Of a stretch of 64,000 bases of DNA, positions 5,037 through 57,560 are shown in pieces. Under the pieces are notes generated by a model that ran no database searches, had not been told where the DNA came from, and saw nothing but the letters and a program-made list of their open reading frames with translations. The position numbers were made by a program, and so were the translations under genes. Positions within the stretch are counted from its first letter, which is position 1. Every line of letters begins with the position of its first letter. The stretch lies in contig OZ020590.1 in NCBI GenBank assembly GCA_963971535.1, positions 149,495,680 to 149,559,679 of the forward strand, read 5' to 3'. Origin of the DNA: Notolepis coatsorum. Taxonomy: Eukaryota > Chordata > Actinopteri > Aulopiformes > Paralepididae.

Positions 5037-5061
5037 CTGGTTCTAGTTCAAACCCATTAAT

Positions 5062-6492: not shown

Positions 6493-6560
6493 TCAAACCC
6501 ATTAATTAAGATTAAAATGCCAACCTAACAAACGAAGGTCCAAATGTTCGGGCTCAGCCC

Positions 6561-17275: not shown

Positions 17276-17374
17276 CCCATTATACCATTCTGAATAATGT
17301 TTTCGCGAGATGATTTCCAAAATGTATTGATTTCATAGAATGTGTGAAATAGGCCTATAATTAAAAACAATTCA

Positions 17375-21765: not shown

Positions 21766-21846
21766 CTGGAGGGAGGCAGAATAATAACATGAATAGTTGT
21801 AATTGCTGTCACCATTGGAAAGCCACCCATTTTAAGAATTCACACA

Positions 21847-29131: not shown

Positions 29132-29143
29132 GCCGCCTCCTAA
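29132..29143 (-). other. Polypurine-tract candidate of the BEL/Pao element
   Basis: On minus, TTAGGAGGCGGC abuts the 3' LTR, the place where plus-strand DNA synthesis primes in LTR elements. Confidence 0.55.
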
Positions 29144-29225
29144 TTAGTCCCACCTAATTAGCTAAGCAGAGACAGATTAACCGCACTGTCCACTACTCAA
29201 TGTCTGTTGTGAGGGGTCGGGCAGT

Positions 29226-32408: not shown

Positions 32409-32414
32409 ACCCTC

Positions 32415-35400: not shown

Positions 35401-35456
35401 TTAGGAGAACCGTTTTGTGGAGTGTTCATCATAGGCCATGTCAATATTAATACCAC
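32415..35456 (-). CDS. gag-pro: BEL/Pao gag and protease
   Basis: The 1,013-codon frame has a basic, glutamine- and glutamate-rich coiled-coil-like stretch (REAERDLALTKREAERDRLQ, about residues 165-280). A capsid-type region follows (LLKHLKVPRAHNIALAYA, about 480-600), then cysteine-histidine modules (CPYCEKEHWLSQC near 677, CYRCARSHMAADC, CSRCDGAHLDVLH near 727). The aspartic protease active site lies in AVLDDGSEKTLL near 794. The first Met may be replaced by MM at codons 9-10. The frame ends in TGA shortly after the protease; two codons later the pol ORF's first Met follows in the same frame. Confidence 0.92.
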   Translation of the reverse strand: MVLILTWPMMNTPQNGSPKVDRPQRRRQTPQYLEDYVANILPSFLQTVNAEKVDSKIMSDPIDQATPPIEALVGSNVTDQAHGRDQEGPDMTLPPAKTEEVVPGELQDKDSSPGMELYPLQEEESTPEMDLQDSPQENRSPTSTARSGSPQPASSPSEADKMLAQAFLASLAASTERDRLQAQTLSEREHSSMERERLQAQQRSDEDRIRLEIRRLQTEENMVRDRAEAQRAAAEAQRAATGAQREAERDLALTKREAERDRLQAQIMEQLITRATPPPSARGSRASSRQGSRAPSPTRSSDPEPDHQREPIPPSEPLPRPVQVRPSYKEETVYTAERQNRRLQDLEDLPEEEEEGEEESQARQQHSTPQDQEVQYSPGSTPAALRYRPPTQFTGELDAQPAPRNSTWIRGPWYPAGTSPPRGIRGDSPRRPLFQRSPMCQPSMASYIGTPTFPDFTHENRAQYTELRMCLETMMSDVADEPYKYAILLKHLKVPRAHNIALAYATSTTPYTAALAALDQRYGRIWDYVIQEIRHIDRLPPATDNRSLDDLSIKVQSLVGMLGAQREKGMHELYANSNVERILEKLPPARQERFRRQRDHRDPNGPEPSLLDLADFLAREVNSLRLDTFMRSTPSSREGPRRANDGRRLVTVMHQSESVPSSKNHSTPSMKEKWKMVCPYCEKEHWLSQCDTFKKMTADEVSQWIKSNRRCYRCARSHMAADCRLKKRCSRCDGAHLDVLHDSNRRKPAPSSSTKASVMYIDPASSGGARVLLKVVRVTLSYQDKVMDTYAVLDDGSEKTLLLASAAAQLGLRGSENQMTIRTIRRDLKTIKGENVSFTIAASGQPERRYRITNAFTSQEIGLSQYTYPIAKLMDKYVHLRQLPIPLIDGATPTLLIGSDHADLIVPIDRVHTGPRGCPAAVETRLGWTLQGPLAKSLNRTAATSCLHSRVTEEDTTLLQHVERLWTLETMPFKNEKKDIRSKEDIYAIALLEQGTKRVKVNGVMRYATPLLR

Positions 35457-35481
35457 TATATTAATATTACACTAGTTACCC

Positions 35482-35498
35482 TCCGGCTCGAAGGACCA
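35482..35498 (-). other. Primer-binding site, tRNA-Tyr
   Basis: On plus the sequence TCCGGCTCGAAGGACCA equals the 3' end of vertebrate tRNA-Tyr (GUA) including CCA, as I remember that tRNA. It begins two bases inside the 5' LTR border, the standard spacing. Confidence 0.85.
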
Positions 35499-35500
35499 AT

Positions 35501-36849
35501 TGTAACTGAGGGGTACAATTCCCTGACTGTATTGATAAGTATGGTATCATTAAACCACTACCGCTTTATGTACTTTAATTACTGGCCATACAGTACATGA
35601 TATATAAATATGATGAACACTTCCCACAATGAATCGGTTCCACACCAAGGTGTAATTAAGTATTTATTGCAGCAAAAGGTACATAATATACTTCTCTGGT
35701 CACTTTGGATGCGCTTATAAGGCAAGGAATGTGCGTAGGCAAATCAATAATGAATGTCCATTCTCTGGTTACGCAGGAGGTAATTATACAACCTGAATCT
35801 TAGGGAATTATATCTATGGTACACTAGTAATATATAGCGGGAGATACTGGAAGGGTCCCCCCGGTTGTAAGCCAGCAGGGGTAGAGGATCTGTCGGTAGT
35901 AGAGAGTCTGGTCAACGATGACTAAGGAGACTCCAAGTACAGGAGACGGTGCAATAGCCTCTTGATCCACAGACGAATACAGCTGTTCTCCGTAGACTGT
36001 AGCTCCACAGTGAAGAAAGCTAGCCGGCCTCAGGCTCTCTGAGGCGCAGGCTCGACGTGGCTCCCCACAGGGTAAATCCCACACGTGTAGGCGTCGGCGA
36101 TTCTCCGCTCCATAAATCACAGGACCAAAACAAATATAATCCAGCCGCAAAGGGCTATGTAGTCGTCGGGTAGATTAATCCAGTGTACATGTCCACACGG
36201 TTCTCGTCTAGGTCTCCTCGGGTGAAAGCGCCATGAAAGCAGCCCAGCCTGGATAAGCACTCTAGCTGGTACGAGGAAGCGTTGGTGATGCTGGTCACTG
36301 TAGAACTTTAGCCGCACGATACACTATACTCAAATAGACTATTACTGACTTAATAGAAATATGTCGCACTCGACGGTATAGCGCCAAACTCTGACAATTC
36401 AGTTATTAATTCGCACGCGGTCTCAATGCTCTATTTGGGGCCAAACAGGCCATACTTCACCGCACGTTGTATCGTGGGTGAGGCTTCAACTTATTGGGTA
36501 ACTCTTGACTTCTGACTAAGTGCTTCTGTATTCACCTGCGCTATATTTATATGCACGGCGAACAAACTAGTGCCAACCTCATTTCTGTCTCCGTATTCCT
36601 GGGCAAGGCCGGGCATGTACAGACATGTCTTGACGGTGACTTTGAACCTGACTCTGGAGGCATGGCCCTGGCGCCTGTGGACCGCTGTCCAATAGGAGAA
36701 TGAAATATTATGGTCTGGACTAGGCTAAAGGGACATTCCGTGTATATGTACAAGGAATATACAAGGGATATCAAACGATATACAAATACTATGCAATATA
36801 TATCAATCAATAAATATATATATTCGGTTTAATCTGATCCTTTGTAACA
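35501..36849 (-). repeat. 5' LTR of the BEL/Pao element
   Basis: 1,349 bp, expected to hold the promoter for minus-strand transcription of gag-pol. Identical to the 3' LTR apart from one base noticed. Confidence 0.96.
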
Positions 36850-39778: not shown

Positions 39779-39944
39779 CTAGTTACTATATCTATATCTG
39801 TACATATCTCTTACCTACTCTTACTAGTTACGCTGCTGGCCAGTATGACTTACTACCATAGTGTCTTTATACCTGTATCACTGTACATATTAATACTTAA
39901 TACTACAACTCTGTACATACATCTGATTAGCACTAATACTAATC

Positions 39945-40080
39945 AGTGGCTCGGGAGGTAGAGCAGTCATCTGGTAATCTGGAGGTTCCCAGTTCGATTC
40001 CCCTTCTCCCGGGCAGCGTGTCGAAGTGTCCTTGAGCAAGACACTTAACCCCTAACTTAACCCCATTGCAGTAGTCGAGG
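39945..40080 (+). mobile_element. tRNA-derived SINE, unit C
   Basis: Paralogue of 86-220; box A here is intact (GGTAGAGCAGTC). Confidence 0.7.
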
Positions 40081-40179
40081 GAGGCGAGACGTGACTGTTG
40101 ATTGGACGAGGAGTTGGGTGGCTTCATGTCAGCAAGGGGCGGATCCTTCTGCCGTTGCTCAGGAGGAACATTCCATGCA

Positions 40180-41238
40180 GGGCAGGGATACAAACTGGTC
40201 AGACTACTGCTTGACCTTACTCCTAGAACCCACCTCACCCCTGCCCACTTTGACAACCTAGGATGGCTTAGAGTAGACGACAGAGTACAGCAACTTGCAA
40301 TGGGCCTGGTCTACAAGATACACTACACGAATAATGTCGAATGTCAAATTACTTCCCAAAGGTCAGTGAATACCACGATCACAACACCAGAGGGAGCTCC
40401 ACAAATCATGTCAAACCCAGATTCGGCTCAAACAAGGGACTAAACACGTTTTGCAATTATGCCACATCAATGTGGAACGCCCTACCCACAGCTGTAAAGG
40501 AATGTGAATCACTACCCACTTTCTTTTTTTTTTTATATATTTTTTATTATTGCAAAACAAAAATTATTAAAAGTCAGTACTCAACACATAATGCATAATG
40601 AAACTAACAGTCAAGGTGGTTAAAATTACATGCAAGTACAGAAACAAGACAAAAAAAAAAGTCTATAATAACATTTTAACCGTATACAGTGTATATCCAG
40701 CGAAATTAACAATTATATAAATGTTTATATAGGATCACTACCCACTTTCAAAGAGCACCTACGAGACTGCAGTTGAAAACTGGCCCCTGTAAATGTCTAA
40801 ACCCAACCCCCTCCAATGTACAGTAAATGTCCTAACCCAATAATACACGAGACCCTCTTCTTGGGACCAAGTAAGGTTTAGTCGATATTCCAATGTACAG
40901 TTTTGCTTGTACAGTTTCCCCCACCCACCCAACTACCTCCAATGTACACTCCCCCCCCCCCACCTACCCAACCTCCTCCAATGTACAGTTTCTACAGTTT
41001 AGACTCTTTTGGTATCACAAACAGTACTGTATTTGTAAATCTGGTATGTCATAAATGTATAGATGTAGCAGTACTGTCTATCTGTATCTTGTGTATGTCA
41101 TATATGTTATGATGAATTGAAAATGGGAGACCCTGATGTAAACTAGACGAAAGTCTTTCTCTGGTCTGCATCCCCTTAACAATTGTGTGTATTGAGCTGT
41201 ACTGTATTGTACCCATTCTGCAATCTGTTAATAAAGTT

Positions 41239-41283
<45 letters not shown>

Positions 41284-41285
41284 AC
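40180..41285 (+). mobile_element. LINE 3' end, unit C (no MITE)
   Basis: Paralogue of the unit A and B LINE end, running through to (CAAT)n of about ten repeats. It keeps the uninterrupted CTTTCTCTGGTCTGCATC at 41154-41171, the empty site of the Harbinger-like element. It is itself split by a poly(A) retroposon at 40524-40733. Confidence 0.85.
40524..40733 (-). mobile_element. Poly(A)-tailed retroposon fragment, 16-bp target duplication
   Basis: 210 bp starting with a T run on plus, flanked by ATCACTACCCACTTTC at 40508-40523 and 40734-40749. The long duplication and A-tail indicate L1-type target-primed insertion on minus. Source family not recognised. Confidence 0.85.
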
Positions 41286-41528
41286 ACGGCACACTGAGGC
41301 CTACAACAAACTGACCGGATCTTCCTTTATTCATTATGTTGATTGTACTGTAGCACTATTTTACTCTGTCCATTCTATTGCATAATTTTACTATCTACTA
41401 TTATTGCGTCTGTATTATTTTACTCTGTTTATTGCTTTTTATTACAGGTTCAAAACTGTCAGGTATTAAACTGTGTGGGTATCAAACAAGAGACTGTCAG
41501 GCTTTAAAACTGTGTAGGACCCAGACCT

Positions 41529-41588
41529 AGAACTGCACCCTGAGAGGGAACTGCACCCTGAGAGAGAACTGCACCCTGAGAGGGAGGT
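41529..41588. repeat. 18-bp minisatellite, unit C
   Basis: Only about three copies, against about ten in A and twenty in B. Confidence 0.85.
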
Positions 41589-41958
41589 TCGAAGGGTCAA
41601 AGTGGGTATAAGACAGGAGGGAAGACTGTCTAGTTTTAAACTGTGGATACCAAACAGAGAAGGTAAAGACGACTTTGAACTGTTGAACAGTAATCCAGAA
41701 CTATTTTATTGCACTGTAAAAAAAAATATATATATATATTTAGCATGGAATAGCGCACAAACTAAAGTATGTAGAAATTATCTGGTTAGTCAGTCTTGGA
41801 CTATAAACAATGCCTGTCAAATGAGCCATACTATTGTCTCCATCCATAGCTATAATACAGAACACATGATGGGTCCGCAAACATAGCTAAAATGGTCAAT
41901 AACGCTGGCGCCTGGCGCCATTGAGTAAAGATGGGAAAAGAGCGTGGCAGTCAATGAG

Positions 41959-43539
41959 TTAACAGGGACGGGGTTGAATGTGAACTAGATGAGGGAGGGA
42001 AGGACGTGAGTTTGTTTCTTCTCTGGTGTGAATCATCATGTGTGTCTTTATATATGCCTTCAGAGTAAATCCTTCCCCACAAACAAAAAACCCACAAACT
42101 TCACAACTAAATGTTTTTCCCCCAGTATGAGTTCTGATATGTACTTTTAAGGCATGTTTTGCACCAAATATTTTATCACACAGTGTGCAACTATAGGGCT
42201 CTTCCCCAGTATGGCATCTCATGTGTCTATTCAGGTCTCCCTGTGAAATATATCTTTTAGGACACAGGGTGCACTATAGGGCTTTTCCTCAGTATGGCTT
42301 CTCATGTGTCTATTCAGGTGTCCCCGTGTAATATATCTTTTATGACACAGTGTGCAACTATAGGGCTTTCTCCCAGTGTGGCTTCTCATATGTGCCTCCA
42401 AGAGTGTAATAGCAGTAAATTTCTTGCCACAAACAGTACATGTCATGTGAATTTGAAAGTGAAGTTTTAAGCTCTCTGTGGGTTCTAAATGTTTCCCACA
42501 CAAACCACAGTCACTAGAATGGGCTTTAAGATGGGGCATTAAAGCTTTCCTATTAGGAAAACATTTCCCACACACTTCACAGCTCCAGGTCTCACGTGGT
42601 ATTTGGTTTGATAATTTCACCTCATGGGATGCAACCACAGAGCTCTTCAACTGGTTGCTGTTAGACAAACTCTGTCCTTTGTTTTTCTGTGTCTTCTTTG
42701 ATGTCAGTGAGTTTAAACCAGGATGAGGTTCACTAGTCTCCAGCCAATCATCACTGTCATCAGTATCAGTTCCAGAACAGTCTGAAGAGAGGAGCTGGCC
42801 ATCTGTAGTTGGTTCTAAAGCTGGATCTAAGTTACTGACTGGTTCTGATAATCCACAGTCCTCTCCATCAGGTTCTGTTTTCATCTGTTCTGTTGAGGTG
42901 CTGGCTAGAGGCTCTGTCTCTCTGTTTTCCTCAGTCTGGGTTTGGTTGAACCATGAGGACTGAGGTTTCTCTTCATCATGTTCACTCTTCACAGGGACAG
43001 GGTTGAAAGTGAACATGATACCAGCCTCCTCCAGACCTTGAAGCTGCTCTCCCTCCTGACTGGTCCAGAGTTCCTCCTGTTCCTCTTTAATCTGTAGGAG
43101 CTCTGGGTCCTGGGTTTGGTTAAACCATGAGGACTGAGGTTTCTCTTCATCATGTTCACTCTTCACAGGGACAGGGTTGAAAGTGAACTTGATGATATCA
43201 GCCTCCTCCAGACCTTGAAGCTGCTCTCCCTCCTGACTGGTCCAGAGTTCCTCCTGTTCCTCTTTCATCTGTAGGGGCTCTGGGTCCTGGGTTTGGTTAA
43301 ACCGTGAGGACTGAGGTTTCTCTTCATCATCTTCACTCTTCACAGGGACAGGGTTGAAAGTGAACTTGATGATATCAGCCTCCTCCAGACCTTGAAGCTG
43401 CTCTCCCTCCGGACCGGTCCAGAGTTCCTCCTGTTCCTCTTTAATCTGTAGGAGCTCTGGCTGCTCCTGGCTCAGACTGGGCTCCTCTCTTGCTGCTCAG
43501 GGGGAACCTCCTCTTCACAGACAGAGAGCTGTGGGGGGT
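41959..43539 (-). pseudogene. Zinc-finger pseudogene (ZNF C)
   Basis: Paralogue of ZNF A and B with at least two single-base deletions. One is at about 43480 (GACTGGG where A and B have GACTGGGG), just after the splice acceptor. The other is at about 42273 (GTGCACTAT for GTGCAACTAT), inside finger 5. A 15-base in-frame insertion (about 42076-42095) adds five residues between the cysteines and histidines of the last finger. The N-terminal acidic region has an additional copy of the KEEQEELWTSQEGEQL repeat. Fingers 1-4 and the finger before the last are otherwise intact. With the first shift the standard protein cannot be made; internal starts such as 43343 would give a fragment. Confidence 0.87.
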
Positions 43540-43618
43540 CTGGAGGGAGGCAGAATAATAACATGAATAGTTGTAATTGCTGTCACCATTGGAAAGCCAC
43601 CAATTTTAAGAATTGACA

Positions 43619-43800
43619 CATGTTCTTCCTGTGCCCCAGGACAGTTCAGTCAGTATGTTCTTCCTGTGTCTCAGGACAGTTCAGTCAGTATGTTCTACCT
43701 GTGTCTCAGGACAGTTCAGTCAGTATGTTCTTCCTGTGTCTCAGGACAGTTCAGTCAGTATGTTCTTCCCGTGTCTCAGGACAGTTCAGTCAGTATGTTC
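43619..43800. repeat. 35-bp minisatellite, unit C
   Basis: About five direct copies upstream of ZNF C, with no inverted block. Confidence 0.9.
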
Positions 43801-43828
43801 TGACTGGTTCTGGTTCAAACCCATTAAT

Positions 43829-44288
43829 CTTTTTTTTTTTTTTTTCACTTTTTCTCCTTATTTCCAATTTTGTATTATCCAATTCTTCCCTCCCCTGTCT
43901 TGAACGTTGCTAGACTATGCCTCCCACTGGTCGGCTGTAGTGAGGATAGAAGCCTTGCATCACGTGCCCCCTCCGGTACATGAGAAGGCAGCCTGTCGCA
44001 TCTTTTCACCAGACAGCTCGAACTCTCAGTGGCGAGGAGTAACGCGTGGGAGGCTCACGCTGCCCCCAATACTTCCTGTCTCTGCTGTACAGGCGCCACC
44101 CAACCGACCTGTAGAAGTCACTGTCCACAACGTCCAATCCCCTCCCACCAGCTTTCCCACCCTCTAACACTGCCAATTGTGTTAGTATGACGGCCGGCCA
44201 AGCCGGTAGCAACGCCGAGAGCTGGGCTCAATACCAGCATATCCTGTGTTAGTGACGAGCGCCTTGCCCACTGCGCCACTCAGCCGCC
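43829..44288 (-). mobile_element. 460-bp tRNA-derived SINE, unit C (intact)
   Basis: Target duplications TCAAACCCATTAAT at 43815-43828 and 44289-44302. On minus: GGCGGCTGAGTGGCGCAGTG head, box B region, body ending AGTGGGAGGCATAG, then a T-rich stretch and A-tail. It is the undisrupted allele of 5062-6492 and contains the single TAT (43916-43918) used by the transposon there. Confidence 0.92.
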
Positions 44289-44358
44289 TCAAACCCATTA
44301 ATTAAGATTAAAATGCCAACCTAACAAACGAAGGTCCGAACGTTCGGGCTCAGCCCTA

Positions 44359-44667
44359 CCTCTATGTAAAGTCATCTACTAGTAAACTAGCAGTCTTACC
44401 TCTATGTAAAGTCATCTACTAGTAAACTAGCAGTCTTACCTCTATGTAAAGTCATCTACTAGTAAACTAGCAGTCTTACCTCTATGTAAAGTCAGCTACT
44501 AGTAAACTAGCAGTCTTACCTCTATGTAAAGTCATCTACTAGTAAACTAGCAGTCTTACCTTGATGACTTTACATAGAGGTAAGACTGCTAGTTTACTAG
44601 ATGACTTTACATAGAGGCAAGACTGCTAGTTTACTAGATGACTTTACATAGAGGCAAGACTGCTAGA
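44359..44667. repeat. 40-bp tandem array with inverted end, unit C
   Basis: Five direct copies to about 44562 and two and a half inverted copies to 44667. Same junction (TTACCTTGATGACTT) as in unit A, so the inversion predates the A/C split. Confidence 0.9.
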
Positions 44668-44939
44668 TTAGTAATTACTTTATGTAACGGTTCTCATTCA
44701 GTCAGAGACAGAAGAGTGACTCTGAACTGCTTTTTGACATGTATTGTCCCTCAGCTGCAGAAGACACATAAAACAACATATTTGTAGTCTTCTGGTCACT
44801 GCACATCTTGCATACCCTCAGCAGAGAGATACAGAACTGCTCTGTTCTTTTGTAATGCCTCAATAACATTTACTTTATAAATAAATAGGAAAAAGAAAAG
44901 TATGTTTTATCAAAATAGGATAAATTAAATTAAACATGA

Positions 44940-45605
44940 TGGAAAGAAACTGTGGAAAACATTAAATGAGCTAATGGGCAGATCAGGGGACAACACACCC
45001 TCCTTTATAGAGTCAGGCAATGCCTTCATTACTAAACCTCTAGAAGGCTAGATATTGCAAACTACTTTAATGATTTTTTTTGTTGGGAAGATAGAGAAAC
45101 TAAAAAGTGAGATAACAATCTTTCAAAACAATTGATTAATGACCAACTAATGAGAAATAAAGATTGTGAGTTTGACTTTCAAACTGTGCATGTGAATAAA
45201 GTAGAAGCATTTCTTAGTAGTGTAAATGTTGAAAAACCATCAGGATTAGGATCAGCGACTTCGGGTCATTGAGAAGCGCTATATAAATAAAATGAATTAT
45301 TATTATTATTATTAGATGGGAAACTCTTGGGTATGGTTTCTGGCTCTATTACACTACCCATATGCCATATTTTTTATCTAAGCTTACTGAAAGGTGTATG
45401 TCCATTGGCATGGAAAGCTGCTAAAGTTATTCCACTACCCAAAAACAAGGAGGACATGTTTTCAGGTGCTAATAGCGTCCTATCAGCATTCTTCCAGTGC
45501 TTAGCAAACTCATGGAAAGAATTGTGTTTGACCAGGTTTCCTCTTTTTTTTTCTACTAACAAACTCAACTCTGAATTTCAGCATGCGTACAAAAAAATAT
45601 CACTC
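44940..45605 (+). pseudogene. LINE reverse-transcriptase fragment, unit C
   Basis: Better preserved than in A: GSITLPICHIFYLSLLKGVC, AWKAAKVIPLPKNKEDMFSG, then a shift and SEFQHAYKK. A 65-bp retroposon tail (45248-45315) interrupts the frame. Not functional. Confidence 0.75.
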
Positions 45606-45782
45606 CACTCCTAACTCCTAACCCCTAAGCTACAGTCTATGTATATGGTTGGGAGCTTTATACAATTAAACTCTTACACTAAACCAAAATCAAATCAAAA
45701 CATTACTTAAAACAGAAATGGTAAACTAGCGCCACCTGCTGAACATAGCAGGAAATGCCACAGTGCATAGACTATCTGATAG

Positions 45783-46276
45783 ACTATCAAAACCACTCTC
45801 AAAGAGCACCTATACGAGAGACTGCTATTCGAAGCTGGCCACTGTAAATGTCCTAACGCAACCCCCTCCAATGTACAATAAATGTCCTATTAAACCCAAT
45901 AATACACAAGACCCTCTTCATGGGACCAAGTAAGGTTTAGTCGATAATCCAATGTACAGTAACCCCCCCCCCCCCCCCCCCCCGCCTACCCAAGCCCCAC
46001 CCCACCCACCTCCTACAATGTACAGTTTCTTCGTCAAATGTATATACTCTCTTTTTTAGACTATTTTTGTATCACAAACAGTACTGTATTTGTAAATCTG
46101 GTATGTCATAAATGTATAGATGTAGGTAGCAGTACTGTCTATCTGTATGTCGTGTATGTTATGATGAATTGAAAATGGGGGACCCTGATGTAAACAAGAC
46201 GAAAGTCTTTCTCTGGTCTGCATCCTTGTGTATTGAGCTGTACTGTACCCATTCTGCAATCTGTTAATAAAGTTTT
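45783..46276 (+). mobile_element. LINE 3' end, unit C second copy, left part
   Basis: Runs to AATAAAGTTTT, where the large LTR element is inserted; the (CAAT)n tail reappears at 57021. Carries the empty sites of the two unit A transposons (9066-9416, 9445-9983). Confidence 0.85.
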
Positions 46277-47957
46277 TGTCGTATATTTCTAAATGAAAAC
46301 ATGAATAAAGCAAACTATAAATGTACCAAAATATTGAGTTATAAGAAAGAGCCGGAAAAACACCATGTTGGTAGAAAGAGGGTAGAGCCAAGTCGACTCT
46401 CCCATCACCCCAACAGATGGCTGACCTTAAGATAATTACTGGGCCCTCCAGGCTATATTAAGATAAGGCAGGAAGGACTCTAGCTAAAAGAGGAACAAAA
46501 GCTTACTCAAGAATGACCCATTTGCCCCCACCGGTCGAACCTATTTGGTAATAACAGACAGAAGGAAGGAACTAAAACAAACTGAAAATAACAGTGAGAT
46601 CAAAAGGTCATATTTACCCTAAGTAAGGGATTTCAGGTTACGACATGGCAGAATGGTTAGGGGACAGAGTAAAAGGAGTGGTAAAAAGAGCCTCTCAGAT
46701 AGACGAGTCAGCAGCACTCAAGTAAGGCCAAATGTTCAAAATGCATCCAGGATATAGAAAAAACTAACAAGGTTACATGTAGGCATAAACTCTTAGAAAC
46801 TATTAGAATAACTTAGTCACAATAAAGAAAAGAAACTCTTAAAGCTAGAAGGTAAAACTATACTGTATTGGTCAAATGTTCATCAGGAAAATAAGGTGTT
46901 CTATTAAAGAACGGATATATAGGGTTTGTTATCTGGGCACTGTCTGGAAAAGTAGTCTGGTTCTTATCTAGACTATGTAAACCTTTTAGTCATAAGCATG
47001 ATGTTGTATTACTCAGTGAAAACTACCCTCTCATTAAGTAATGATTAAAGTGTCAGCAGATTCAAACTGTGAAAACCGTTGTCAGAAGACCCAGGAAATT
47101 GTGTAACATGTGGTCACAGGATACCCTCAGACAAGTTCTGCTGGAATGTGACAGGAATAGGCAGGGTCTCCCCCCCCTCTCTCTCTCTCTGTCTCCCCCT
47201 CTCTCTCTCTCCTCTAATAAAAAGGGCAAATGGCGACTCATGAGACACACGACTCACACCAGAAGGAACCTGGAGAGAAAGACACACACACCCGGTGACA
47301 CTCAGAGGAGATGGAGAAGGATCCCTGCAGAGCCAAGCCGTGACACAGAGGGACTGAGACCCGATGACAGACGAAATCGCTTCGCATCAGGAGAAGCGCT
47401 GACACACCAGAAAGGACCTGAAGACCCAGAGACATGGGGACAGACGAGGACAGAGATCGCATCGCAACTTGAGCGCTGAACCTCCACCGACGGAGAGAGG
47501 ATCACCACCCGGAGCTTGAGAGCCGAGCCGGAGACTCAGAGCCACTGACACCCAATGACAGAAGATCGCTTCGCAGCAGGAGATCCTGCCACGGAGAGAG
47601 ATGAAATCAAGCGCTCCTTGCTTGAGCGCTGAGACTGAGGAGACCAGGTTGTCTTGACAACCAGACCAGCAAACCACAAGAGAGGACTCGGTGTTGGCCA
47701 TGGACAACCTAAGACAGCGAACAGCACAGAGAGACGACAACAGCCAAATGAAAGAGACGATGTACTGTTTTAATTCCTAAAGCTGTTTTATTAATAAACA
47801 CCGCCGCCCGTTGATTTTGACCATATCGTCAGTCTCCTCTTACTTGAAACCGAACATCTGAAAATACCTAAAACCATGCAGAGGAAAGGGTGAAATAGAA
47901 CACTATACGATCAATGAACTTAGATAAGAGATACATGAATGAAGAAAAGACACTTCA
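46277..47957 (+). repeat. 5' LTR of the pol-less element
   Basis: 1,681 bp, TGTCGTATATTT...AGACACTTCA. It contains a CT-rich tract (47170-47212) and AATAAA at 47793-47798. Frames such as the 136-codon one at 47069 recur in the other LTR and are not recognised proteins. Confidence 0.94.
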
Positions 47958-47959
47958 AA

Positions 47960-47977
47960 TGGTCCGTGACCCGTCCT
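47960..47977 (+). other. Primer-binding-site candidate, tRNA unassigned
   Basis: TGGTCCGTGACCCGTCCT starts two bases after the LTR. The TGG start and spacing are right. It partly resembles a tRNA-His site (TGGTGCCGTGACTCGG) but with differences, so I do not assign it. Confidence 0.5.
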
Positions 47978-50900
47978 GCATTTCGACCAGAAACCGGTTG
48001 AAAAACGACAGCAGCCACTTCTCAAGGACACGGAGAGGTTCTCTCCCCCTCATCGATGCTCTCTACGACTGAGGACGGAGGATCGTCACCGTTGCGACCG
48101 AGGCCAGTGGGAATAGGTAAGTAGTACTAATGTGTTTACAATTGGTAAATGGTCGAAGCAGTCTCGCATTTTGGGGTTGCTATTACATTAGGTAGAAATG
48201 AGTTGTAAATGGACCAGGATAATGTTGGTGTTGGAGGGGTACCGGGGTCCAGGTTTCACAACCTGGCTCTGGTCTCAGCCACACACCGGCGCTGCACTTA
48301 TGTTCGGTTAGGATACCTATAATTGGTACGAGGCCAAGTGAGGAGAGGAAATAGATGTCTGTATTTAGTTATATCAGTTTGGGGATAGGCTAGGGTTTAG
48401 GTAAAATAATTGAGGGGACTGGCGTAGGAGCAGTAGAACGGAGATTAGTCACAGATAGCGGGAAGTGGGACTGTGCGTGACGGAGTGGTTCAGTAGAGGG
48501 TAAGGTAAAGAGTTTAATGTGAAAACCGTGGTAGTACAGGGCAGCCTGGTTCCACGAAGAGATAACCGTGGTGAAGTTCAGGGATAGCCTGGTTCCGCGA
48601 AGAGAAATAGAGAACAGGGAGGTAATTGGTTGCTTTTTTTTCCGCGCCATCATTCGCGGACTTCACTCTTAGAATCGGCACGTATAACAGACGAGTTTAG
48701 AAAGACGTTTTCATACAGATCTGTTGTAGTGTGACCCGACGGAATCTGCTTAAAAAATTCGCCTTTGGTACGGATTTTTGAGAAGGTATTTGGTCGATTT
48801 GGGGGTGAGACAGGTAAAAGCTCCCCAAACGGCGCTGAATATGAAGATTGAGAGGCTGAGAAGAGGAATGATGGGGGGGGGGGAAAGTAACCTTTGGAGA
48901 TAATGCACTTGTGGGAGAAATGCGTGGGGTAACTGCACAGGGGATTAGAACAATAGGAAGAATATTGTGTGAAATGAAGCAAGGAAATGCGTTTGGAAGG
49001 AATGTGTGCATAAATGAATGGTGTGCTTATGAATGAGACATTAATTTGTTAAGTATATGTGTTTGAATGGATGGATGTTAGGAGCTCTGAGTAAATGTCA
49101 AGGTATTTTTTGTATTATTATGAACCAGCTGGTGGCCAAGGCTGCAACGGAGAAACCACACCCCTGTCCTGCCAGCATTAGCTGGCGCGACGGGACTAGC
49201 GTGTGGACGCTGTGTTGCGTTTTCGAGTGAATTGAATGAATGACATGTGAGATGGAACCTAGGAGATGTGGAATGTGCGTTGAAATTTTTCAAATCGGGG
49301 CTGTAGAAATTTAAAAGTAATGTAGTAAAGATCAAAGAAAACGGGGATTTTAGAGCTGGTGACGTCATAGGGAGCGTCGGAGCTTGGGGTGCGTTAGATT
49401 TGGAATAACGGGGCTAGATCGGGAGCGTTATATTTAAAATACGGAGCCGGCCGGGGCCAAGCGGGCGAGCGTACTGGGATAAGGATAATAATATATGTTC
49501 TGTGGACGGGGGCTTAATAGGATTAAAGTTGTGTTATGGGGGAAAGCAGGGGTTGTGTAAAAGTTGCGAGGTGTTGTGCCGCTCGAGTCAACAGGACTGG
49601 GCCGTTTAGGAGGAGTGGTGTTGGATGCTAAGCTAAGCTAATAGGAGCTGGCGGCGCTGAGCTAACGAAGCTAAGATGCTAAGCTACCTGTGCTAACTAT
49701 GTAGCATGGTTGGACTCTCGGGGAATCTCGCGTGTTGCTACTCTTTGCTAGTGCGGGATCTTAGAGAGGCGATGGACAGGTACTTCCGGTGTAGAGGGTT
49801 CTGGGAATTGTAGTTTTGTGGTTGAGGTAGAACGTCGAGTTGACGTCTTGGGGTGGTTTACGTAATGACGCACTTGCGGGGGAGGCGTGGGCACCTCCTA
49901 CAGGAAGTGGTGAGTGCTGTGGTGCGTTGGTGATGATGAGCGTACGTTCCAGTGGAGGGCGCTGTTGCCTCTTTTATAGTTTCACCTTTACAGGTGGGAC
50001 GGGGTGCAGTAAACAATAGAGATCAGTTGTGATTATTATAGGTTTTGAAGCGCGGAAATCTGTGGGGATTTGTAAATTCTTTATATTAGGTTTTTTCTGT
50101 TGTTGATGATGGGTGTGTTTACTGGTTTGATTATAGGTCTGTATTTGTTATGGGCCAGGGGTAATGGCGCTGGTGGGATAGTATGGGATAGATGTGTGAG
50201 TTTGTTTGTGACTTTGGTTGCATGAAAACCCCCCCCCCCCCCCCCCTTTTTCCTCTGTCTCTTCCTCCCTCGTTCACACTCCTTCCCTCCCTCCCTCCCT
50301 CCCTCTCTCCCTCCCCCCCCCCCCCCCCCCCCCCCCCGCCCCCCTCCGCTCTATCCCTGTCTCCCGGCTTAACTTTGTGAGGGGACAGGTGCACAAAGGG
50401 AGTTTTTGTTTAGTATAGATTGCCTGATTGATTGATTGATTGAAGGATTTTGTTAACAGACTGTAGAGTGGGTGCAGTACAGTGCAGCTCAATACACACA
50501 ATTGTTAAGGGGATGCGGACCGGAGAAAGACTTTCGTCTTGTTTACATCAGGGTCCCCCATTTTCAATTCATCATGGGCGTGGAGTATTGGTTATATTAG
50601 AATAATGTTACTTGCTAAAATAGGATTACATAAGGATAAATAGAATATTCATGGTTATTCTTTTGGTCTGATTAAAGTTAAGGTTGATTTAGACGGTTTT
50701 GGTAGTAGTTAATGTTGCATTGTGTGACCCCCCCCCCCCCCCCCCCCTTTCCTCCCCTTAGTCCCTGGATCCCTGTATCCCTCCCTCCTTTTTTCTTTTC
50801 CCTTCCCTGTCTCTCCTTGTATTTCGCCATCCCTGGATTGCGGCGTGTTGTGGGCATTTGGTTGTAGGTTTATGTGTACTGCGTTGTTATTGTATATGTG

Positions 50901-52052
50901 AAGTAGGTACCGGATGGGCGCTGGCCTGTCTAGGTGCAGGTGGTGGTAGGATGATTTGTGATATTCTTGGTGTGGTAGAAGCTTGGGGTGATTCCGTTCA
51001 GGTTCGAAACTGAAGGGAGGACGCTTTGGGCTGTGAGTTGACGGTTCTTTGTGTATTCGGAGAACTGGGAGGATATTGCGGTGGCATAGTGCGGGTGTCC
51101 ATGAAATTATTAACGTGGCCAGCTGTACTATGTGTCGGTCAGGGTTTTAGTGATCTAAGTTGCTAAAAGTTTATTGTTTTCCCTGATTAGGTGGTTGGTA
51201 GCAGTAGCAACACTGATTAATTTTTATTAAGTGTTGTGGGGGGTAATGGTTGTGTGTGAGGCGGAATGAAATGGATGTAGTATGAGAAGTGAAGCGAAAG
51301 CGAATAATACATTTAGTCGATACGCTAATTGGAATAATACATTTAGTCGATACGCTAATCGGGCATTTGAAAGTAAGAGATAAGGTTAGGATGAACAGAT
51401 TCATCAAGCAAAGAGAGATTAGAATCAGATGAAGGACCAGGTTTACAAAGGATTATTAGACAATGGATAGGAAGGGGATTAATGATTATATTTCCCAGGA
51501 AACTAGGAGGAGAGAGCACACAGGGGATTGGAAAACTCCAGTGTTCCTGTTGAAGGAACGGACAAAAAACAAGATAAGCTGTATCGTTATTTTTTCAAGC
51601 AAATCACACTGTGTCTCTTTAAATATATTAGTATAGTGTTGCCCGACATTTCCAATGCATAACGAAGAGTGGAAATAATAAGGGAAATGCCACTGTATTA
51701 AGTTGGATATTTCTGCTTTCTTTCTATACAGATGCTCAGCCGGACAGGTGCTCTAAACGACTTCCACAACCATCTAGGGAAAACGGTTTGAAAAGCCTTG
51801 GTATAAGTATGAATGATAAGCCAATTATCAATCCTTGTCTGCACAGTAAAATTTTGACAGTGTGAGTGTTTTAACTCAAGTAAGTAGAAAATAGTGTAAG
51901 ACGGAGAAATTTGTTTTTTCAAACGGTGATTACAAGAGAGTGTTGAAAGTGGAATGAATGACAGTAACATAGGAAGTTCACTTTAGTGGGACATTTGATA
52001 GGAACAACTGAAGCGTTAGATGCAATAACAATAGAATAACAACAACGACAAT
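47978..52052 (+). other. 4.1-kb leader of the pol-less element
   Basis: No long plus-strand frame. Features seen: C/T homopolymer tracts (50229-50247, 50316-50345, 50729-50747), clustered GCTAA motifs (49630-49705), a duplicated AATAATACATTTAGTCGATA pair at about 51305-51358, and a minus-strand LINE 3' fragment (50431-50575). Minus-strand ORFs here have no domain. Confidence 0.6.
50431..50575 (-). mobile_element. LINE 3' fragment in the leader
   Basis: Begins ATTGATTGATTGATTG (tail) and runs to CCCCCATTTTCAATTCATC, the family UTR. More diverged than most copies (GACTGTAGAGTGGGTGC). Confidence 0.75.
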
Positions 52053-53048
52053 ATGGAAGAGGGCCTTAGTGATCGGGCCATTGGGGGGAGTAGGCCGAGG
52101 GCCTCTGCAGACATTTCCCAGATAGACTATACCAGTGATGATCTGATTGATTTGAATATGGACTTCTCTCATGTGACCAGTACGACAGAAGGACTTGGAA
52201 TGATGACTTTGATTCCAACACAGGGGAGTGAACCAGTGACAACGGTGTTACTCCAACCAGAACCGATTCAAGCTGGAGTGTCCATTGCAGGCGACTGCGG
52301 TTTAACCAAGGGGCAGAAAAAGAGACTGAGGTTACAGCCGTCCCACGAAGTCCACTCTGGCCGGAGGGCTGGAACTGAGACCGACAGCAGGTATGGAATA
52401 CACGAACAGTTTCTACAGCCCACCCAGGGACGGCAAGCCGCCGGTGCTGAGATGGGGGAAGAGGCAGCATACTATAGACAACAGAGAGCGTTTGTGACAG
52501 CGTTCGAACAACACGAGGCAGTTCATCGAGATCTGATGAAGATACAGCTGGAGATCGGTCAAGCCGCACACGAGACTCAGAGACTGGGACGAGAACTGGC
52601 GAGAAAGACTGTGCTACTAGAAGCGACAGCTGTTGAGATCATGCTTCGGGCGTCTGACCTAGGCCGCTGTGATCAAAGGATGCCCTGTGCTCTGTTGCCC
52701 GGACAGGGAACTGGGCCGCAACAGGGTGAACAGGACCGCAGGAGGGGTGAGTTTCCAGGCCCCTCCCAACAAGAGAAGGCCCGAGGAGAGGCAGCAGAAA
52801 AGGACAGGTATGCCCCTCTCTCCTCCAGGCAACAGGACATGCGACCAGAGGACAGGAGAGGGGTGGACCTGGAGAGGACGGTGGGAGGCCAGCCGAGAGA
52901 CTGTGGGAGTCGTGGTAAACTGGGTGAACTGGAACCCCTGGGATGGCCGGCGTCGGCTGTGTGCTGGGGTTGTGGGGAGGTTGGCCATTTCGCTCGGTCA
53001 TGTGACAAAGGGTGGAGGCCTCAGCGAACGTCCAGAAAAAAGAAATGA
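52053..53048 (+). CDS. Gag-like protein with CCHC zinc knuckle
   Basis: 331 codons. The first half is acidic with no clear domain. A predicted helical stretch (RAFVTAFEQHEAVHRDLMK to ETQRLGRELARKTVLLEATA, about 150-210) is followed by a basic, glutamine- and arginine-rich region. One CX2CX4HX4C knuckle (CWGCGEVGHFARSC) lies at about 307-320, and a lysine/arginine tail follows. This is the order of a retroviral or LTR-element Gag: packaging protein with nucleocapsid at the end. After the TGA (53046-53048) the same frame continues with a second knuckle-like CWECGELGRCQRGC, in which the His position is Arg. The product would act in RNA packaging of the element, if made. Confidence 0.75.
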   Translation: MEEGLSDRAIGGSRPRASADISQIDYTSDDLIDLNMDFSHVTSTTEGLGMMTLIPTQGSEPVTTVLLQPEPIQAGVSIAGDCGLTKGQKKRLRLQPSHEVHSGRRAGTETDSRYGIHEQFLQPTQGRQAAGAEMGEEAAYYRQQRAFVTAFEQHEAVHRDLMKIQLEIGQAAHETQRLGRELARKTVLLEATAVEIMLRASDLGRCDQRMPCALLPGQGTGPQQGEQDRRRGEFPGPSQQEKARGEAAEKDRYAPLSSRQQDMRPEDRRGVDLERTVGGQPRDCGSRGKLGELEPLGWPASAVCWGCGEVGHFARSCDKGWRPQRTSRKKK

Positions 53049-53114
53049 GCCAAACAGGGTTGCTGGGAATGTGGAGAGTTGGGACGTTGTCAGAGGGGGT
53101 GTCTGCATAGGTCA
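53049..53114 (+). pseudogene. Second zinc knuckle remnant after the gag stop
   Basis: In-frame continuation of the gag-like ORF up to a TAG at 53115-53117. CX2CX4xX4C spacing is kept with Arg in place of His. Either the ancestral nucleocapsid had two knuckles and has decayed, or the stop is bypassed. Confidence 0.6.
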
Positions 53115-53117
53115 TAG

Positions 53118-53700
53118 GTTAATTAAGAACGAGGCAGGAATGCACAAGCGGAGCTAATAGTGCTCGGGAAAATAGAGTTATTAATAAGTTAAAATGGGAA
53201 GAAGGACTGATTGGAATAAAAATAGAGAAAAATATATATAGAAGCGTTGGTACATTAGATTATGAGTGGAAGCGACTAAGATGGATGTGCAACTAACAGG
53301 GAGAGATGAAATTACTGACAGATGCATGAGCCGATCGTACTAACAGTTAATTAATAGACAAATCATGGGTTTTCCTTTTTGCTACAGTGTGTCTGATCAA
53401 CTCTTGCTGTGGCGGTGAGGAAAACGTAAGGGAGAATGGTATGGTGGACGATTTTTGGTATCTCCCACCTGTGCAGCCTGGCCCGGCTGCACAGATTGGA
53501 GAGAGAGAGAAAAATGGTCACCGCAATGGCTCTTGTGGTCATGTGAACTCTGAACCAGACGGTGTCAGAGAAGGGTTAAACAGTTGGGTTTTAGACAGGA
53601 ACAATGGAACATATAATATTAGACAGAGTTAGAAACAAAGGACTATTTATAGTAGTGATTACAATACTTGATCAAAGGGTGGTCAAGGTTGATTTTGAAG

Positions 53701-53744
<44 letters not shown>

Positions 53745-55335
53745 AACAACAATATTATTATTTCATTACTTATTTTATTTCTTTTTGGATTTCTAATTTT
53801 GCTGTCTTAGTTTTGCGGGGGTATTTATGCCTCTGGATGATAGTTTAATTCTGTTGGATGGGTGTGTAGCATGTAGGCACTCACAGTTTTTTGTTTATTT
53901 TTAATTTTCTTTGTTTTTGGTTGACTATATTTTTTTAGGAACTGGCTGGCTGGGGGGGTTCTCTCGCCGGTCAGGGGTAGCAGGTGGTGGTGACACAGCG
54001 GGACTGGTAGGAGGTCTGATATAATGTGCTGGAAACTGAGAATGGACGGGAGCTGGTTCATGGTTTGTTTTCCGCTCATTAAGGCTCCAGATGTAGAATC
54101 TGGAGGGTTGTGTCACTTTTTGGGTTATGATAAGTGTTGGGGGAACATATTTCTCTGTCTATAAGAAAGCTCTGTAGGTTGTTGGTCGCAAATTGGCCAG
54201 ACGGTGTTCATGTAGAGTGCAGACATGTGAATTTGATGATTGACTTATGGAAGACTCTGCACCGGCTTGTTGAAAGCTGGCGGAGTGTGTGTGGTGTGTG
54301 TTTAAAGGGACTGTGGTTTGTTGACCATGCACATAGGATCTGTTGGTGATTGGCCTCGTCTAGAGCTGACTGTCCGGACCGAGGAGCTGTCGGGAAACGA
54401 GGTATTTGGAAGTGAAATAATAGTTATTCCACTGTCAAGGGTGGAGGTAGTTGTGTTGATCTTGAGATATTGAATCTAGTAAAACAGTACAGCACAAAAA
54501 GAAATGAGACAAAGATGATTTGATTGAATGTTAACGTAAGAAGCTGTGAAATACATAGATAATGAATTGGAGAAAAATGTATTGTCAAAATGCAGAACAG
54601 TAAAGATGTATCTGTGAAAATAAATGTTTCCAATCTATTGTGTGTTTTGTAAATAATAATCCAAAATGCAAAAAGGACAGAGGGAAAATCGATTCCTTCT
54701 GTGGAAAATCGGAGCAGTACCAGAGACCTGCATACAACGAAGAAAAAGGCGGTGATTAGCACAAAATACAACAAGAAGAAACAAAACGGTCAAAAACGAG
54801 TTAGCAGTAAAGGCTTTAGGAGGTTTAAACAGGGATAACTGACAGGGATGAAAGCAAAGGATAATTGAGGCCTCAGTGGTCTTTTTAAGGAGTAAAAATG
54901 ATTTATGTTGCTTGTTTGAATTTCCCTCAAATGTTTAGAGAGTTAATCTTTTAGTGGTGTGATGTATTAATCTTTTCTTGCAGAGTCCATTACACAAAAT
55001 AGACATTTAAGCTAAGTACATGGATAAATATAGTCTTAAACAAAAAGAAGCTGAGAATGGTACGATCATCTCTTTGCATAGAGAGACGGACCTAGACTGG
55101 ATGTCATAATAATAACTGATAATGTGTATAAACTGTGAAAGGAGGAAAAGGTAGGTGAAATGATGATTTTGTAACTGTACAGATGGAAAGGGTTTTGTAG
55201 TTCGATTTGGGGAAATTTTGGATTTTTTTGAAAATTTTAGAAAATATTAGCAAAAATTATGAGAATGATTTTAAACATGTTTAATTTAGAATATTAATGT
55301 TGTATAGGAGGTTATTAAACCCCCTAAGGGTGGAT
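53118..55335 (+). other. 3' internal region of the pol-less element
   Basis: Holds an 81-codon frame at 53387-53632 (CLINSCCGGEENVRENG...) preceded by a pyrimidine stretch and CTACAG like a splice acceptor, a 40-base poly(A) at 53701-53740, and then no supported coding. The LTR is preceded by AAGGGTGGAT, a weak polypurine tract. No pol motifs in any frame. Confidence 0.55.
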
Positions 55336-57016
55336 TGTCGTATATTTCTAAATGAAAACATGAATAAAGCAAACTATAAATGTACCAAAATATTGAGTTA
55401 TAAGAAAGAGCCGGAAAAACACCATGTTGGTAGAAAGAGGGTAGAGCCAAGTCGACTCTCCCATCACCCCAACAGATGGCTGACCTTAAGATAATTACTG
55501 GGCCCTCCAGGCTATATTAAGATAAGGCAGGAAGGACTCTAGCTAAAAGAGGAACAAAAGCTTACTCAAGAATGACCCATTTGCCCCCACCGGTCGAACC
55601 TATTTGGTAATAACAGACAGAAGGAAGGAACTAAAACAAACTGAAAATAACAGTGAGATCAAAAGGTCATATTTACCCTAAGTAAGGGATTTCAGGTTAC
55701 GACATGGCAGAATGGTTAGGGGACAGAGTAAAAGGAGTGGTAAAAAGAGCCTCTCAGATAGACGAGTCAGCAGCACTCAAGTAAGGCCAAATGTTCAAAA
55801 TGCATCCAGGATATAGAAAAAACTAACAAGGTTACATGTAGGCATAAACTCTTAGAAACTATTAGAATAACTTAGTCACAATAAAGAAAAGAAACTCTTA
55901 AAGCTAGAAGGTAAAACTATACTGTATTGGTCAAATGTTCATCAGGAAAATAAGGTGTTCTATTAAAGAACGGATATATAGGGTTTGTTATCTGGGCACT
56001 GTCTGGAAAAGTAGTCTGGTTCTTATCTAGACTATGTAAACCTTTTAGTCATAAGCATGATGTTGTATTACTCAGTGAAAACTACCCTCTCATTAAGTAA
56101 TGATTAAAGTGTCAGCAGATTCAAACTGTGAAAACCGTTGTCAGAAGACCCAGGAAATTGTGTAACATGTGGTCACAGGATACCCTCAGACAAGTTCTGC
56201 TGGAATGTGACAGGAATAGGCAGGGTCTCCCCCCCCTCTCTCTCTCTCTGTCTCCCCCTCTCTCTCTCTCCTCTAATAAAAAGGGCAAATGGCGACTCAT
56301 GAGACACACGACTCACACCAGAAGGAACCTGGAGAGAAAGACACACACACCCGGTGACACTCAGAGGAGATGGAGAAGGATCCCTGCAGAGCCAAGCCGT
56401 GACACAGAGGGACTGAGACCCGATGACAGACGAAATCGCTTCGCATCAGGAGAAGCGCTGACACACCAGAAAGGACCTGAAGACCCAGAGACATGGGGAC
56501 AGACGAGGACAGAGATCGCATCGCAACTTGAGCGCTGAACCTCCACCGACGGAGAGAGGATCACCACCCGGAGCTTGAGAGCCGAGCCGGAGACTCAGAG
56601 CCACTGACACCCAATGACAGAAGATCGCTTCGCAGCAGGAGATCCTGCCACGGAGAGAGATGAAATCAAGCGCTCCTTGCTTGAGCGCTGAGACTGAGGA
56701 GACCAGGTTGTCTTGACAACCAGACCAGCAAACCACAAGAGAGGACTCGGTGTTGGCCATGGACAACCTAAGACAGCGAACAGCACAGAGAGACGACAAC
56801 AGCCAAATGAAAGAGACGATGTACTGTTTTAATTCCTAAAGCTGTTTTATTAATAAACACCGCCGCCCGTTGATTTTGACCATATCGTCAGTCTCCTCTT
56901 ACTTGAAACCGAACATCTGAAAATACCTAAAACCATGCAGAGGAAAGGGTGAAATAGAACACTATACGATCAATGAACTTAGATAAGAGATACATGAATG
57001 AAGAAAAGACACTTCA
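55336..57016 (+). repeat. 3' LTR of the pol-less element
   Basis: 1,681 bp, same as 46277-47957. AATAAA at 56852-56857 would serve 3' end formation. Confidence 0.94.
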
Positions 57017-57040
57017 TTTTCAATCAATCAATCAATCAGT

Positions 57041-57560
57041 TAGCAGGTAAATTAATTTACATTGATAAACAATAAACATACAATATGCATGGAGCCACAT
57101 ACCTGCAGAAGACACATAAAACAACACCGCTGGAGTCTTCTGGTCGCTGCACATCTTGCATATCTACATGTACAAAATTAAACAATTCATTAGTTTTTTC
57201 ACCAGAATAATAATAATAACGCAGAGAACAGAGAATGGAATCTGCATGGAATGGCCGTAGCAATCATTGCGACATTTAACCTACCTATAAAACTAGAACT
57301 AGTGGTCAAATTAGCACAAATGTCATAAAACCATGTAATAAAATGAACGTTAAGCATTATGTATTACAAGTTAAAACTTAAATGAGTTACATTTAGCAGA
57401 AACGAGTGAACTGAAGCACCTCCCCTCAGTAGAGAGTGGGTACGGCATCACAACAGGGACGGACAGCGCGATATGCAATGAGGTGGTGCGACAGGATCTC
57501 ACTGCCACCTAGTGGTAGCTGTTGTTACTGTATGTACTGTGTGGATTGATTGATTGAATT
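57041..57560. other. Continuation of unit C after the LTR element
   Basis: Matches unit A 10444-10560 and 11950-12270 (TTAGCAGGTAAATTAATTTA, then GGAATGGCCGTAGCAATC). Unit A has about 1.3 kb more between these two blocks (AAT array, Rex1-like LINE end and a 230-bp insert), which are absent here. Confidence 0.7.

What the first reader, a model, noticed from the sequence alone, without database searches (positions are those of the whole stretch)
46277..57016. Recent 10.7-kb LTR element with gag-like ORF but no recognisable pol
LTRs of 1,681 bp look identical and the TTTT duplication is intact, so it moved recently. Yet the 7.4-kb interior shows only a gag-like frame and a 4.1-kb leader. Such an element must borrow RT and integrase from a partner. 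A gag-encoding, pol-less element with this leader length is unusual and could be an undescribed parasite of a fish retroelement or endogenous retrovirus.
Basis: partly seen in the sequence, partly recalled or inferred. Interest (0 to 1): 0.85.

Follow-up and report, generated by a model that had tools for sequence, protein, structure and literature searches.

The report
Active pol-less LTR retrotransposon family
This is one fresh copy of a large family of mobile DNA elements in which no copying or inserting enzymes were found, yet one protein-coding gene is kept intact, so it probably borrows another element's machinery while supplying an RNA-binding protein of its own.

Summary
The element spans 46277-57016, with two identical 1,681-bp LTRs, TTTT on both sides, and no RT, protease or integrase match in six frames. 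It is not one deleted copy. The host assembly (3.42 Gb) has 753 PPT/LTR junctions of this type (backward control 0). Of 21 copies looked at, the 17 that keep the region all have the same ORF open, and none holds a stretch large enough for pol. LTR pairs are identical in 12 of 13 copies aligned, while LTRs of different copies differ by up to 7.5%, so several lineages moved recently. The ORF is constrained (5.2% versus 12.0% variable sites; fewer amino-acid changes than chance, P about 0.001). "Gag-like" is too generous: Pfam finds only a CCHC knuckle, and a low-confidence model shows one coiled coil and no capsid. The 4.1-kb leader is probably mostly an intron (donor and acceptor kept in 17 of 17 copies). 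Best reading: an established, recently mobile non-autonomous LTR family, moved in trans, that supplies its own nucleocapsid-like protein. No partner was found. It resembles plant TR-GAG elements and is a new variant of that kind.

The parts
46273..46276 (.). Target-site duplication, left copy (TTTT)
   Evidence: 4-bp duplication in 11 of 13 copies, only 3 bp shared in the other 2 (C1, one C6 copy).
46277..47957 (+). 5' LTR, 1,681 bp; TATA-like stretch near 47215 and AATAAA at 47793 (R/U5 limits inferred)
   Evidence: 44 matches in the genome with 40 of 1,835 candidates scored.
47960..47973 (+). Primer-binding-site-like stretch, tRNA-His-like (tRNA recalled, not tested); 9 of 13 copies read TGGTGCCATGACCCG instead, the window and 3 others the one-base-shorter form
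   Evidence: LTR-end/PBS pattern of the commoner form at 137 places in the genome, backward control 0.
48114..48122 (+). Probable splice donor TAG|GTAAGT, the best-scoring donor in the element
   Evidence: kept in 18 of 19 copies examined (miss: deletion copy L042); 17 of 17 that keep the ORF (one as GTGAGT). Matrix recalled and approximate.
51715..51731 (+). Probable splice acceptor (pyrimidine tract + ACAG), about 320 nt before the ORF
   Evidence: 17 of 17 ORF-bearing copies (313-322 nt before the ORF in 16, 1,292 nt in L033, where an optional segment intervenes); second-best acceptor score in the element (the best lies inside the ORF at 52829).
52053..53048 (+). ORF of 331 aa: disordered N-terminus, coiled coil (residues 135-209, predicted), CCHC knuckle (residues 304-317)
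53701..53740 (+). A40 tract; A-run of 15-63 at about 0.6-0.7 kb after the ORF in other copies
   Evidence: 17 of 17 ORF-bearing copies (window plus 16).
55326..55335 (+). Purine-rich stretch before the 3' LTR (PPT-like, AAGGGTGGAT)
   Evidence: PPT/LTR junction at 753 places (<=2 mismatches), backward control 0.
55336..57016 (+). 3' LTR, identical to the 5' LTR
57017..57020 (.). Target-site duplication, right copy (TTTT)

Best explanation
The element is a young copy of a large, recently mobile family of non-autonomous LTR retrotransposons. Its RNA is transcribed from the LTR (inferred), packaged, primed by a tRNA at the PBS, reverse transcribed and inserted with a 4-bp stagger, all by enzymes of some other LTR element or retrovirus (inferred, since no copy read has room for an unseen pol). 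Absence of pol is a shared state of diverged copies, not damage to this one (shown for the copies read). The one conserved ORF makes a self-associating (coiled coil, predicted), RNA-binding (CCHC) nucleocapsid-like protein. It is probably made from a spliced mRNA that removes about 3.6 kb of the 4.1-kb leader, while the unspliced RNA serves as the genome (inferred from conserved splice sites). The protein probably acts in trans, helping the family's RNA into the helper's particles or into reverse transcription (inferred).
For: LTRs identical within 12 of 13 copies aligned, one mismatch in the 13th. LTR difference between copies: median 2.8%, maximum 7.5%, over 136 comparisons of 17 LTRs. 17 of 21 copies looked at (window plus 20 fetched) keep the ORF region, and the ORF is open in all 17; 3 are deletion copies and one stretch was fetched from the wrong side. 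In 18 interiors compared, the longest interior stretch not matching the window copy is 920 bp; examples in L031, L033 and L046 show no pol family. The 121 ORF places listed genome-wide have no stop, open frames 334-388 aa (best candidates are scored first). By coordinates, 20 of 20 PBS sites in the overlap of the two lists pair with a PPT 7.19-8.36 kb away, and the 18 of 100 listed PPT sites with a scored ORF have it 2.2-3.2 kb upstream, leaving little room for pol there. Variable sites: ORF 51 of 977, rest 767 of 6,401. Indels against the window inside alignments: 3 distinct in the ORF, 385 outside. Amino-acid changes 28 versus 38.9 expected, P 0.00095; pN/pS 0.44. Donor and acceptor in 17 of 17. 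Four-gamete violations in 158 of 435 site pairs show recombination, as co-packaged RNAs would give.
Against: No partner was found, so the trans step is an inference. The protein has no homologue in the one search made (4,372 candidates, none at E<=1) and no proven function. The structure model is single-sequence, mean pLDDT 47. One deletion copy without the ORF (L042) also has identical LTRs and a 4-bp duplication, so the ORF may not be needed in cis, unless the deletion came after insertion. Splicing rests on approximate recalled matrices and conservation, not RNA; upstream ATGs remain even after splicing (14 in the guessed first exon, 6 before the ORF). 82 of the 100 listed PPT junctions and 45 of the 100 listed PBS sites have no scored ORF nearby, and an autonomous member could be among the PPT sites. 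Most copies were checked for pol by co-linearity and ORF length, not by a family scan.
Confidence: 0.7

Rival explanations
1. The family is an internal-deletion form of an autonomous retrovirus or LTR element in the same genome that has the same LTRs and the same ORF in an env/accessory position; it simply rides on its parent.
For: Donor-acceptor layout puts the ORF where retroviruses express genes from spliced RNA. 82 of 100 listed PPT junctions have no scored ORF. At least two LTR types share this interior.
Against: The ORF places that could be paired with a listed PPT leave little room for pol downstream (18 of 18), and PBS-PPT distances are 7.19-8.36 kb in 20 of 20. No integrase locus among the 150 scored (of 24,135 candidates) lies near a listed PBS or PPT site. 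No pol remnant in the window copy.
Confidence: 0.2
2. The ORF is a host gene transcript picked up by the element (a retroposed mRNA ending in the A-tract), kept because it helps the element or by chance.
For: A-run of 15-63 about 0.6-0.7 kb after the ORF in 17 of 17 copies; no gag family except the knuckle.
Against: The only AATAAA/ATTAAA between ORF and A-tract in the window is at 53215, about 490 nt before it. The 121 listed protein matches are 92-100% identical with frames of 334-388 aa, so no separate host gene was seen (diverged or split exons would be missed).
Confidence: 0.12
3. The ORF is a passenger and the element is a plain large non-coding derivative (LARD-like) moved only through its LTRs, PBS and packaging signal.
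For: An ORF-less copy with identical LTRs exists (L042).
Against: ORF constraint: fewer variable sites, few indels, fewer amino-acid changes than expected; no stop in 17 of 17 and in 121 listed places, although 0 stops alone has P 0.20.
Confidence: 0.15
4. Identical LTRs reflect gene conversion or assembly collapse, not recent movement.
For: Arrays in tandem exist (C27, three ORFs about 10.05 kb apart; C4, four junctions about 8.53 kb apart), so LTR recombination probably happens.
Against: Identity holds in 12 of 13 pairs at dispersed places, with different LTR sequences per place and 4-bp duplications in 11 of 13.
Confidence: 0.03

Closest known systems
TR-GAG elements of plants (terminal-repeat retrotransposons with a GAG domain)
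   Same: Two LTRs, one ORF, no pol; movement in trans (passages of PMC8704663, on one such Arabidopsis element with a new insertion).
   Different: Not a plant genome (C2H2 zinc-finger arrays and BEL/Pao in the window; species not tested); no GAG capsid domain found, only a knuckle and predicted coiled coil; 4.1-kb leader with probable splicing; no autonomous relative found, whereas the Arabidopsis element has one.
LARD / large non-coding LTR derivatives (recalled)
   Same: Long, mostly non-coding interior and intact LTRs.
   Different: A conserved ORF is open in 17 of 17 copies that keep the region.
HeT-A of Drosophila (recalled; only search listings seen)
   Same: Encodes a nucleocapsid-type protein and no RT of its own.
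   Different: HeT-A is non-LTR and telomeric; this has LTRs, PBS and short target duplications.
Helenus/Ajax non-autonomous LTR elements (PMC10886601, passages)
   Same: Non-autonomous LTR elements with PBS and PPT; animal Helenus makes 4-bp duplications.
   Different: Helenus and Ajax carry small-RNA-derived sequences in their LTRs; this element gave no Rfam match at E<=0.1 and encodes a protein.
Endogenous retroviruses (features recalled)
   Same: TG...CA LTRs, short target duplication, tRNA-type PBS, a splice donor shortly after the PBS.
   Different: No gag capsid, pol or env family found.

Membership tests
TR-GAG | Two LTRs with a single ORF and no pol | tested here: met
TR-GAG | ORF encodes a GAG domain | tested here: inconclusive
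   Only zf-CCHC just under the Pfam cut-off; weak PDB matches, E 0.096 or worse, mostly to knuckles; no capsid fold in a low-confidence model.
TR-GAG | Related autonomous element of the same family | tested here: inconclusive
   None found; 150 of 24,135 integrase candidates scored, 0 near listed PBS or PPT sites.
LARD | No conserved coding region | tested here: not met
   ORF open in 17 of 17 and constrained.
Endogenous retrovirus / autonomous LTR retrotransposon | pol (protease, RT, RNase H, integrase) | tested here: not met
   No pol family in six frames of the window copy; positive control.
LTR retroelement in the wide sense | LTRs with TG...CA, PBS, purine tract, target duplication | tested here: met
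   tRNA identity recalled, not tested.
Troyka | CG...CG ends and 3-bp duplication | tested here: not met
   TG...CA ends and 4 bp in 11 of 13, 3 bp in 2; definition from PMC12440569 passages.

The most novel reading that the evidence does not exclude
A very large, recently mobile, pol-less LTR family in an animal has replaced gag-pol with one new gene: a capsid-less, coiled-coil, zinc-knuckle protein made from a spliced RNA. It acts in trans to steer the family's RNA into the particles of other LTR elements, so the family lives as a long-standing parasite that brings its own packaging adaptor.
Probability: 0.35. Interest if true: 0.8.

Novelty: new variant of a known kind. Interest (0 to 1): 0.62.

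Why it matters
As far as I recall, non-autonomous LTR elements that keep a gene are known mainly from plants, and whether their protein matters is unsettled. A young family with hundreds of junctions, several lineages and a measurably constrained ORF would allow that question to be tested. The lack of any capsid signature, and the probable splicing, suggest a different division of labour between parasite and helper than 'brings its own Gag'. My searches of the open PMC library (listings only, plus passages of three papers) listed no such animal family; listings were capped and that library lacks most subscription papers.

Tried and rejected
A single damaged copy was rejected: the family shares the structure. 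Troyka was rejected on ends and duplication. Rfam: no match at E<=0.1 for 46000-57300. Homologous proteins: none. PDB by sequence: only weak matches, mostly to knuckles. A fold search was not run because the model is poor. The seven PBS-PPT pairs without a listed ORF first looked like candidate autonomous partners; they lost weight because L039, a copy with the ORF intact, is also missing from the ORF list. The extra segments of longer leaders carry no pol family in the examples scanned (L033, L031, L046); one is about 96% like part of the LTR of another subfamily. The retroposed-mRNA idea is weak. Integrase search: 150 best of 24,135 candidates only. The searches for PF18697 and for the LTR-end/leader DNA did not complete.
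Full report
Observation. The two LTRs (46277-47957 and 55336-57016; 1,681 bp) do not differ at any position, start with TG and end with CA, and are flanked by TTTT on both sides. The interior is 7,378 bp. The longest plus-strand ORF runs 52035-53048, with its ATG at 52053, so the leader after the LTR is 4,095 bp.

No pol. The ORF matches only the CCHC zinc knuckle in Pfam (E 4e-4; 20.7 bits against a cut-off of 20.8). The rest of the interior and one LTR were scanned in six frames, in pieces, with stops as X. On the plus strand of the interior six matches to other families appeared at E<=1, all below their cut-offs (best TctB, E 0.0092; one to an insertion-sequence family, TnpB_IS66, E 0.038); the minus strand, the LTR and the other frames over the ORF gave none. 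The same library recognises RT, Pao peptidase and the integrase zinc domain in the window's BEL/Pao element.

A family, not a single deletion. In the host assembly (3.42 Gb, 4,787 contigs) the LTR search scored 40 of 1,835 candidates and returned 44 matches, mostly as pairs. I fetched 20 further stretches. Together with the window that is 21 copies: 17 keep the co-linear interior with the ORF open (334-377 codons), 3 (L042, L044, L049) are deletion copies without the ORF, and one stretch (L050) was taken from the wrong side and says nothing. In the 18 interiors that could be compared with the window's, the longest interior stretch without a match is 920 bp; a 1,482-bp stretch in L048 is its 3' LTR. 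Extra segments of L031, L033 and L046 were scanned and gave no pol family; those of the other copies were not scanned. The PPT/LTR junction pattern occurs 753 times with at most 2 mismatches and the LTR-end/PBS pattern 137 times, the same patterns read backwards 0 times. Of the listed sites (the first 100 of each), 20 of 20 PBS in the overlapping stretch of the two lists pair with a PPT 7.19-8.36 kb away. 55 of 100 listed PBS have a scored ORF 1.1-5.6 kb downstream, and 18 of 100 listed PPT have one 2.2-3.2 kb upstream. The 45 and 82 without one are not shown to lack it, since only 121 of 5,225 ORF candidates were scored and L039, whose ORF is intact, is among the unlisted.

Age. In 13 LTR pairs aligned, 12 have no mismatch and one has a single mismatch. 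Five further pairs have equal scores but were not aligned. Between copies, 17 LTRs differ by 0.4-7.5%, median 2.8%. So insertions are fresh in several lineages at once. Target duplications are 4 bp in 11 of 13, while two (C1 and one C6 copy) share only 3 bp. 158 of 435 informative site pairs in the ORF fail the four-gamete test, which is what template switching between co-packaged RNAs would produce, though conversion between genomic copies or repeated mutation could too.

The ORF is maintained. Variable sites are 51 of 977 in the ORF (52053-53030) and 767 of 6,401 elsewhere in the interior; third positions vary most (13, 15, 23). Distinct indels inside alignments to the window number 3 in the ORF (9, 9 and 1 base) and 385 outside; the 1-base call lies at the edge of a segment present in some copies only, where the frame stays open, and segments that break an alignment were not counted. 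Of 54 single-base variants in 320 codons 28 change the amino acid, against 38.9 expected (P 0.00095, treating variants as independent); pN/pS is 0.44. The absence of stops among those variants is by itself no evidence (P 0.20). All 121 listed ORF places in the genome are free of stops, but the tool scores the best candidates first. The C-terminus comes in three natural forms: 10 of 17 end soon after the first knuckle, 4 of 17 have a second knuckle, 3 of 17 a different tail.

What the protein is. A single-sequence model (mean pLDDT 47, pTM 0.27) shows one long helix, residues 135-209, mostly confident, with disorder elsewhere and no capsid-like bundle. PDB matches are mostly confined to the knuckle, E 0.096 or worse. 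No homologue was found among 4,372 candidates of a 5.8-billion-protein collection. I therefore call it nucleocapsid-like rather than Gag; the missing capsid is likely but not proven.

Leader. The best donor in the element, TAG|GTAAGT at 48114, lies about 160 nt after the 5' LTR. An acceptor with a strong pyrimidine tract ends at 51731. The donor is kept in 18 of 19 copies examined and the acceptor in 17 of 17 ORF-bearing copies (matrices recalled and approximate). Use of both would remove 3,615 nt and 72 ATGs, leaving 6 ATGs between acceptor and ORF and 14 in the guessed first exon. I infer that unspliced RNA is the genome and spliced RNA the messenger.

Helper. The assembly is rich in integrase genes (24,135 candidates; 149 of the 150 scored have no stop). 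None of the 150 lies within 15 kb of a listed family PBS or PPT; one lies near a listed ORF but on the opposite strand. The helper remains unknown. The window's own BEL/Pao element has a 5-bp duplication (ACAAG, read), which argues against it being the helper.

Subfamilies. L051 (C6) matches the window's ORF end and last 2.3 kb of interior at 97% (2,464 bases), but its LTR matches the window's well only over the first 55 bases of the 1.59 kb read. A 0.93-kb part of that LTR is about 96% identical to the extra leader segment of L037, L043, L046 and L048, and at 95% and 90% to two pieces of that of L033. LTR and leader thus seem to exchange modules. Tandem arrays occur on C27 and C4.

Comparison. 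By anatomy the nearest kind is the plant TR-GAG element, of which one Arabidopsis member was caught moving (PMC8704663, passages). Defining points tested: two LTRs, one ORF and no pol are met; a GAG domain and an autonomous relative are inconclusive. It is not a LARD (ORF conserved), not Troyka (ends, duplication; PMC12440569 passages), and not Helenus/Ajax as described (PMC10886601 passages; no Rfam match).

Verdict. Observation confirmed; interpretation partly supported; a new variant of a known kind, with the function of the protein and the identity of the helper open.

Noticed in passing
window 27783-36849: A second young LTR element, coding on the minus strand: LTRs about 1,350 bp, 99.8% identical over the alignment, ACAAG duplication, open frames of 1,062 (RT, Pao peptidase, integrase zinc domain, DUF5641) and 1,018 codons (no Pfam match at E<=0.01); BEL/Pao type.
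   Followed up: partly
window 254-7477, 15783-22129, 39868-45622: Three diverged copies of a segment carrying a C2H2 zinc-finger-like frame (3004-4674, 20411-21808, 42231-43496, minus strand); the pol-less element sits just beyond the third copy (finger type judged by eye).
   Followed up: no
G000:C27:1648646-1669391 and G000:C4:114983490-115009118: Tandem arrays of the family: three ORFs about 10.05 kb apart, and four PPT/LTR junctions about 8.53 kb apart.
   Followed up: no
L051:2413-4001: A subfamily with the same 3' interior but an LTR that matches well only in the first 55 bases; part of that LTR recurs as an optional segment in the leaders of other copies.
   Followed up: partly
window 48524-48605: A 43-bp tandem repeat, about 2 copies, in the leader, 0.6 kb after the 5' LTR.
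   Followed up: no
L050:5301-8762: Open LINE-type frame (endonuclease plus RT, 1,154 codons) next to a family copy on C21.
   Followed up: no
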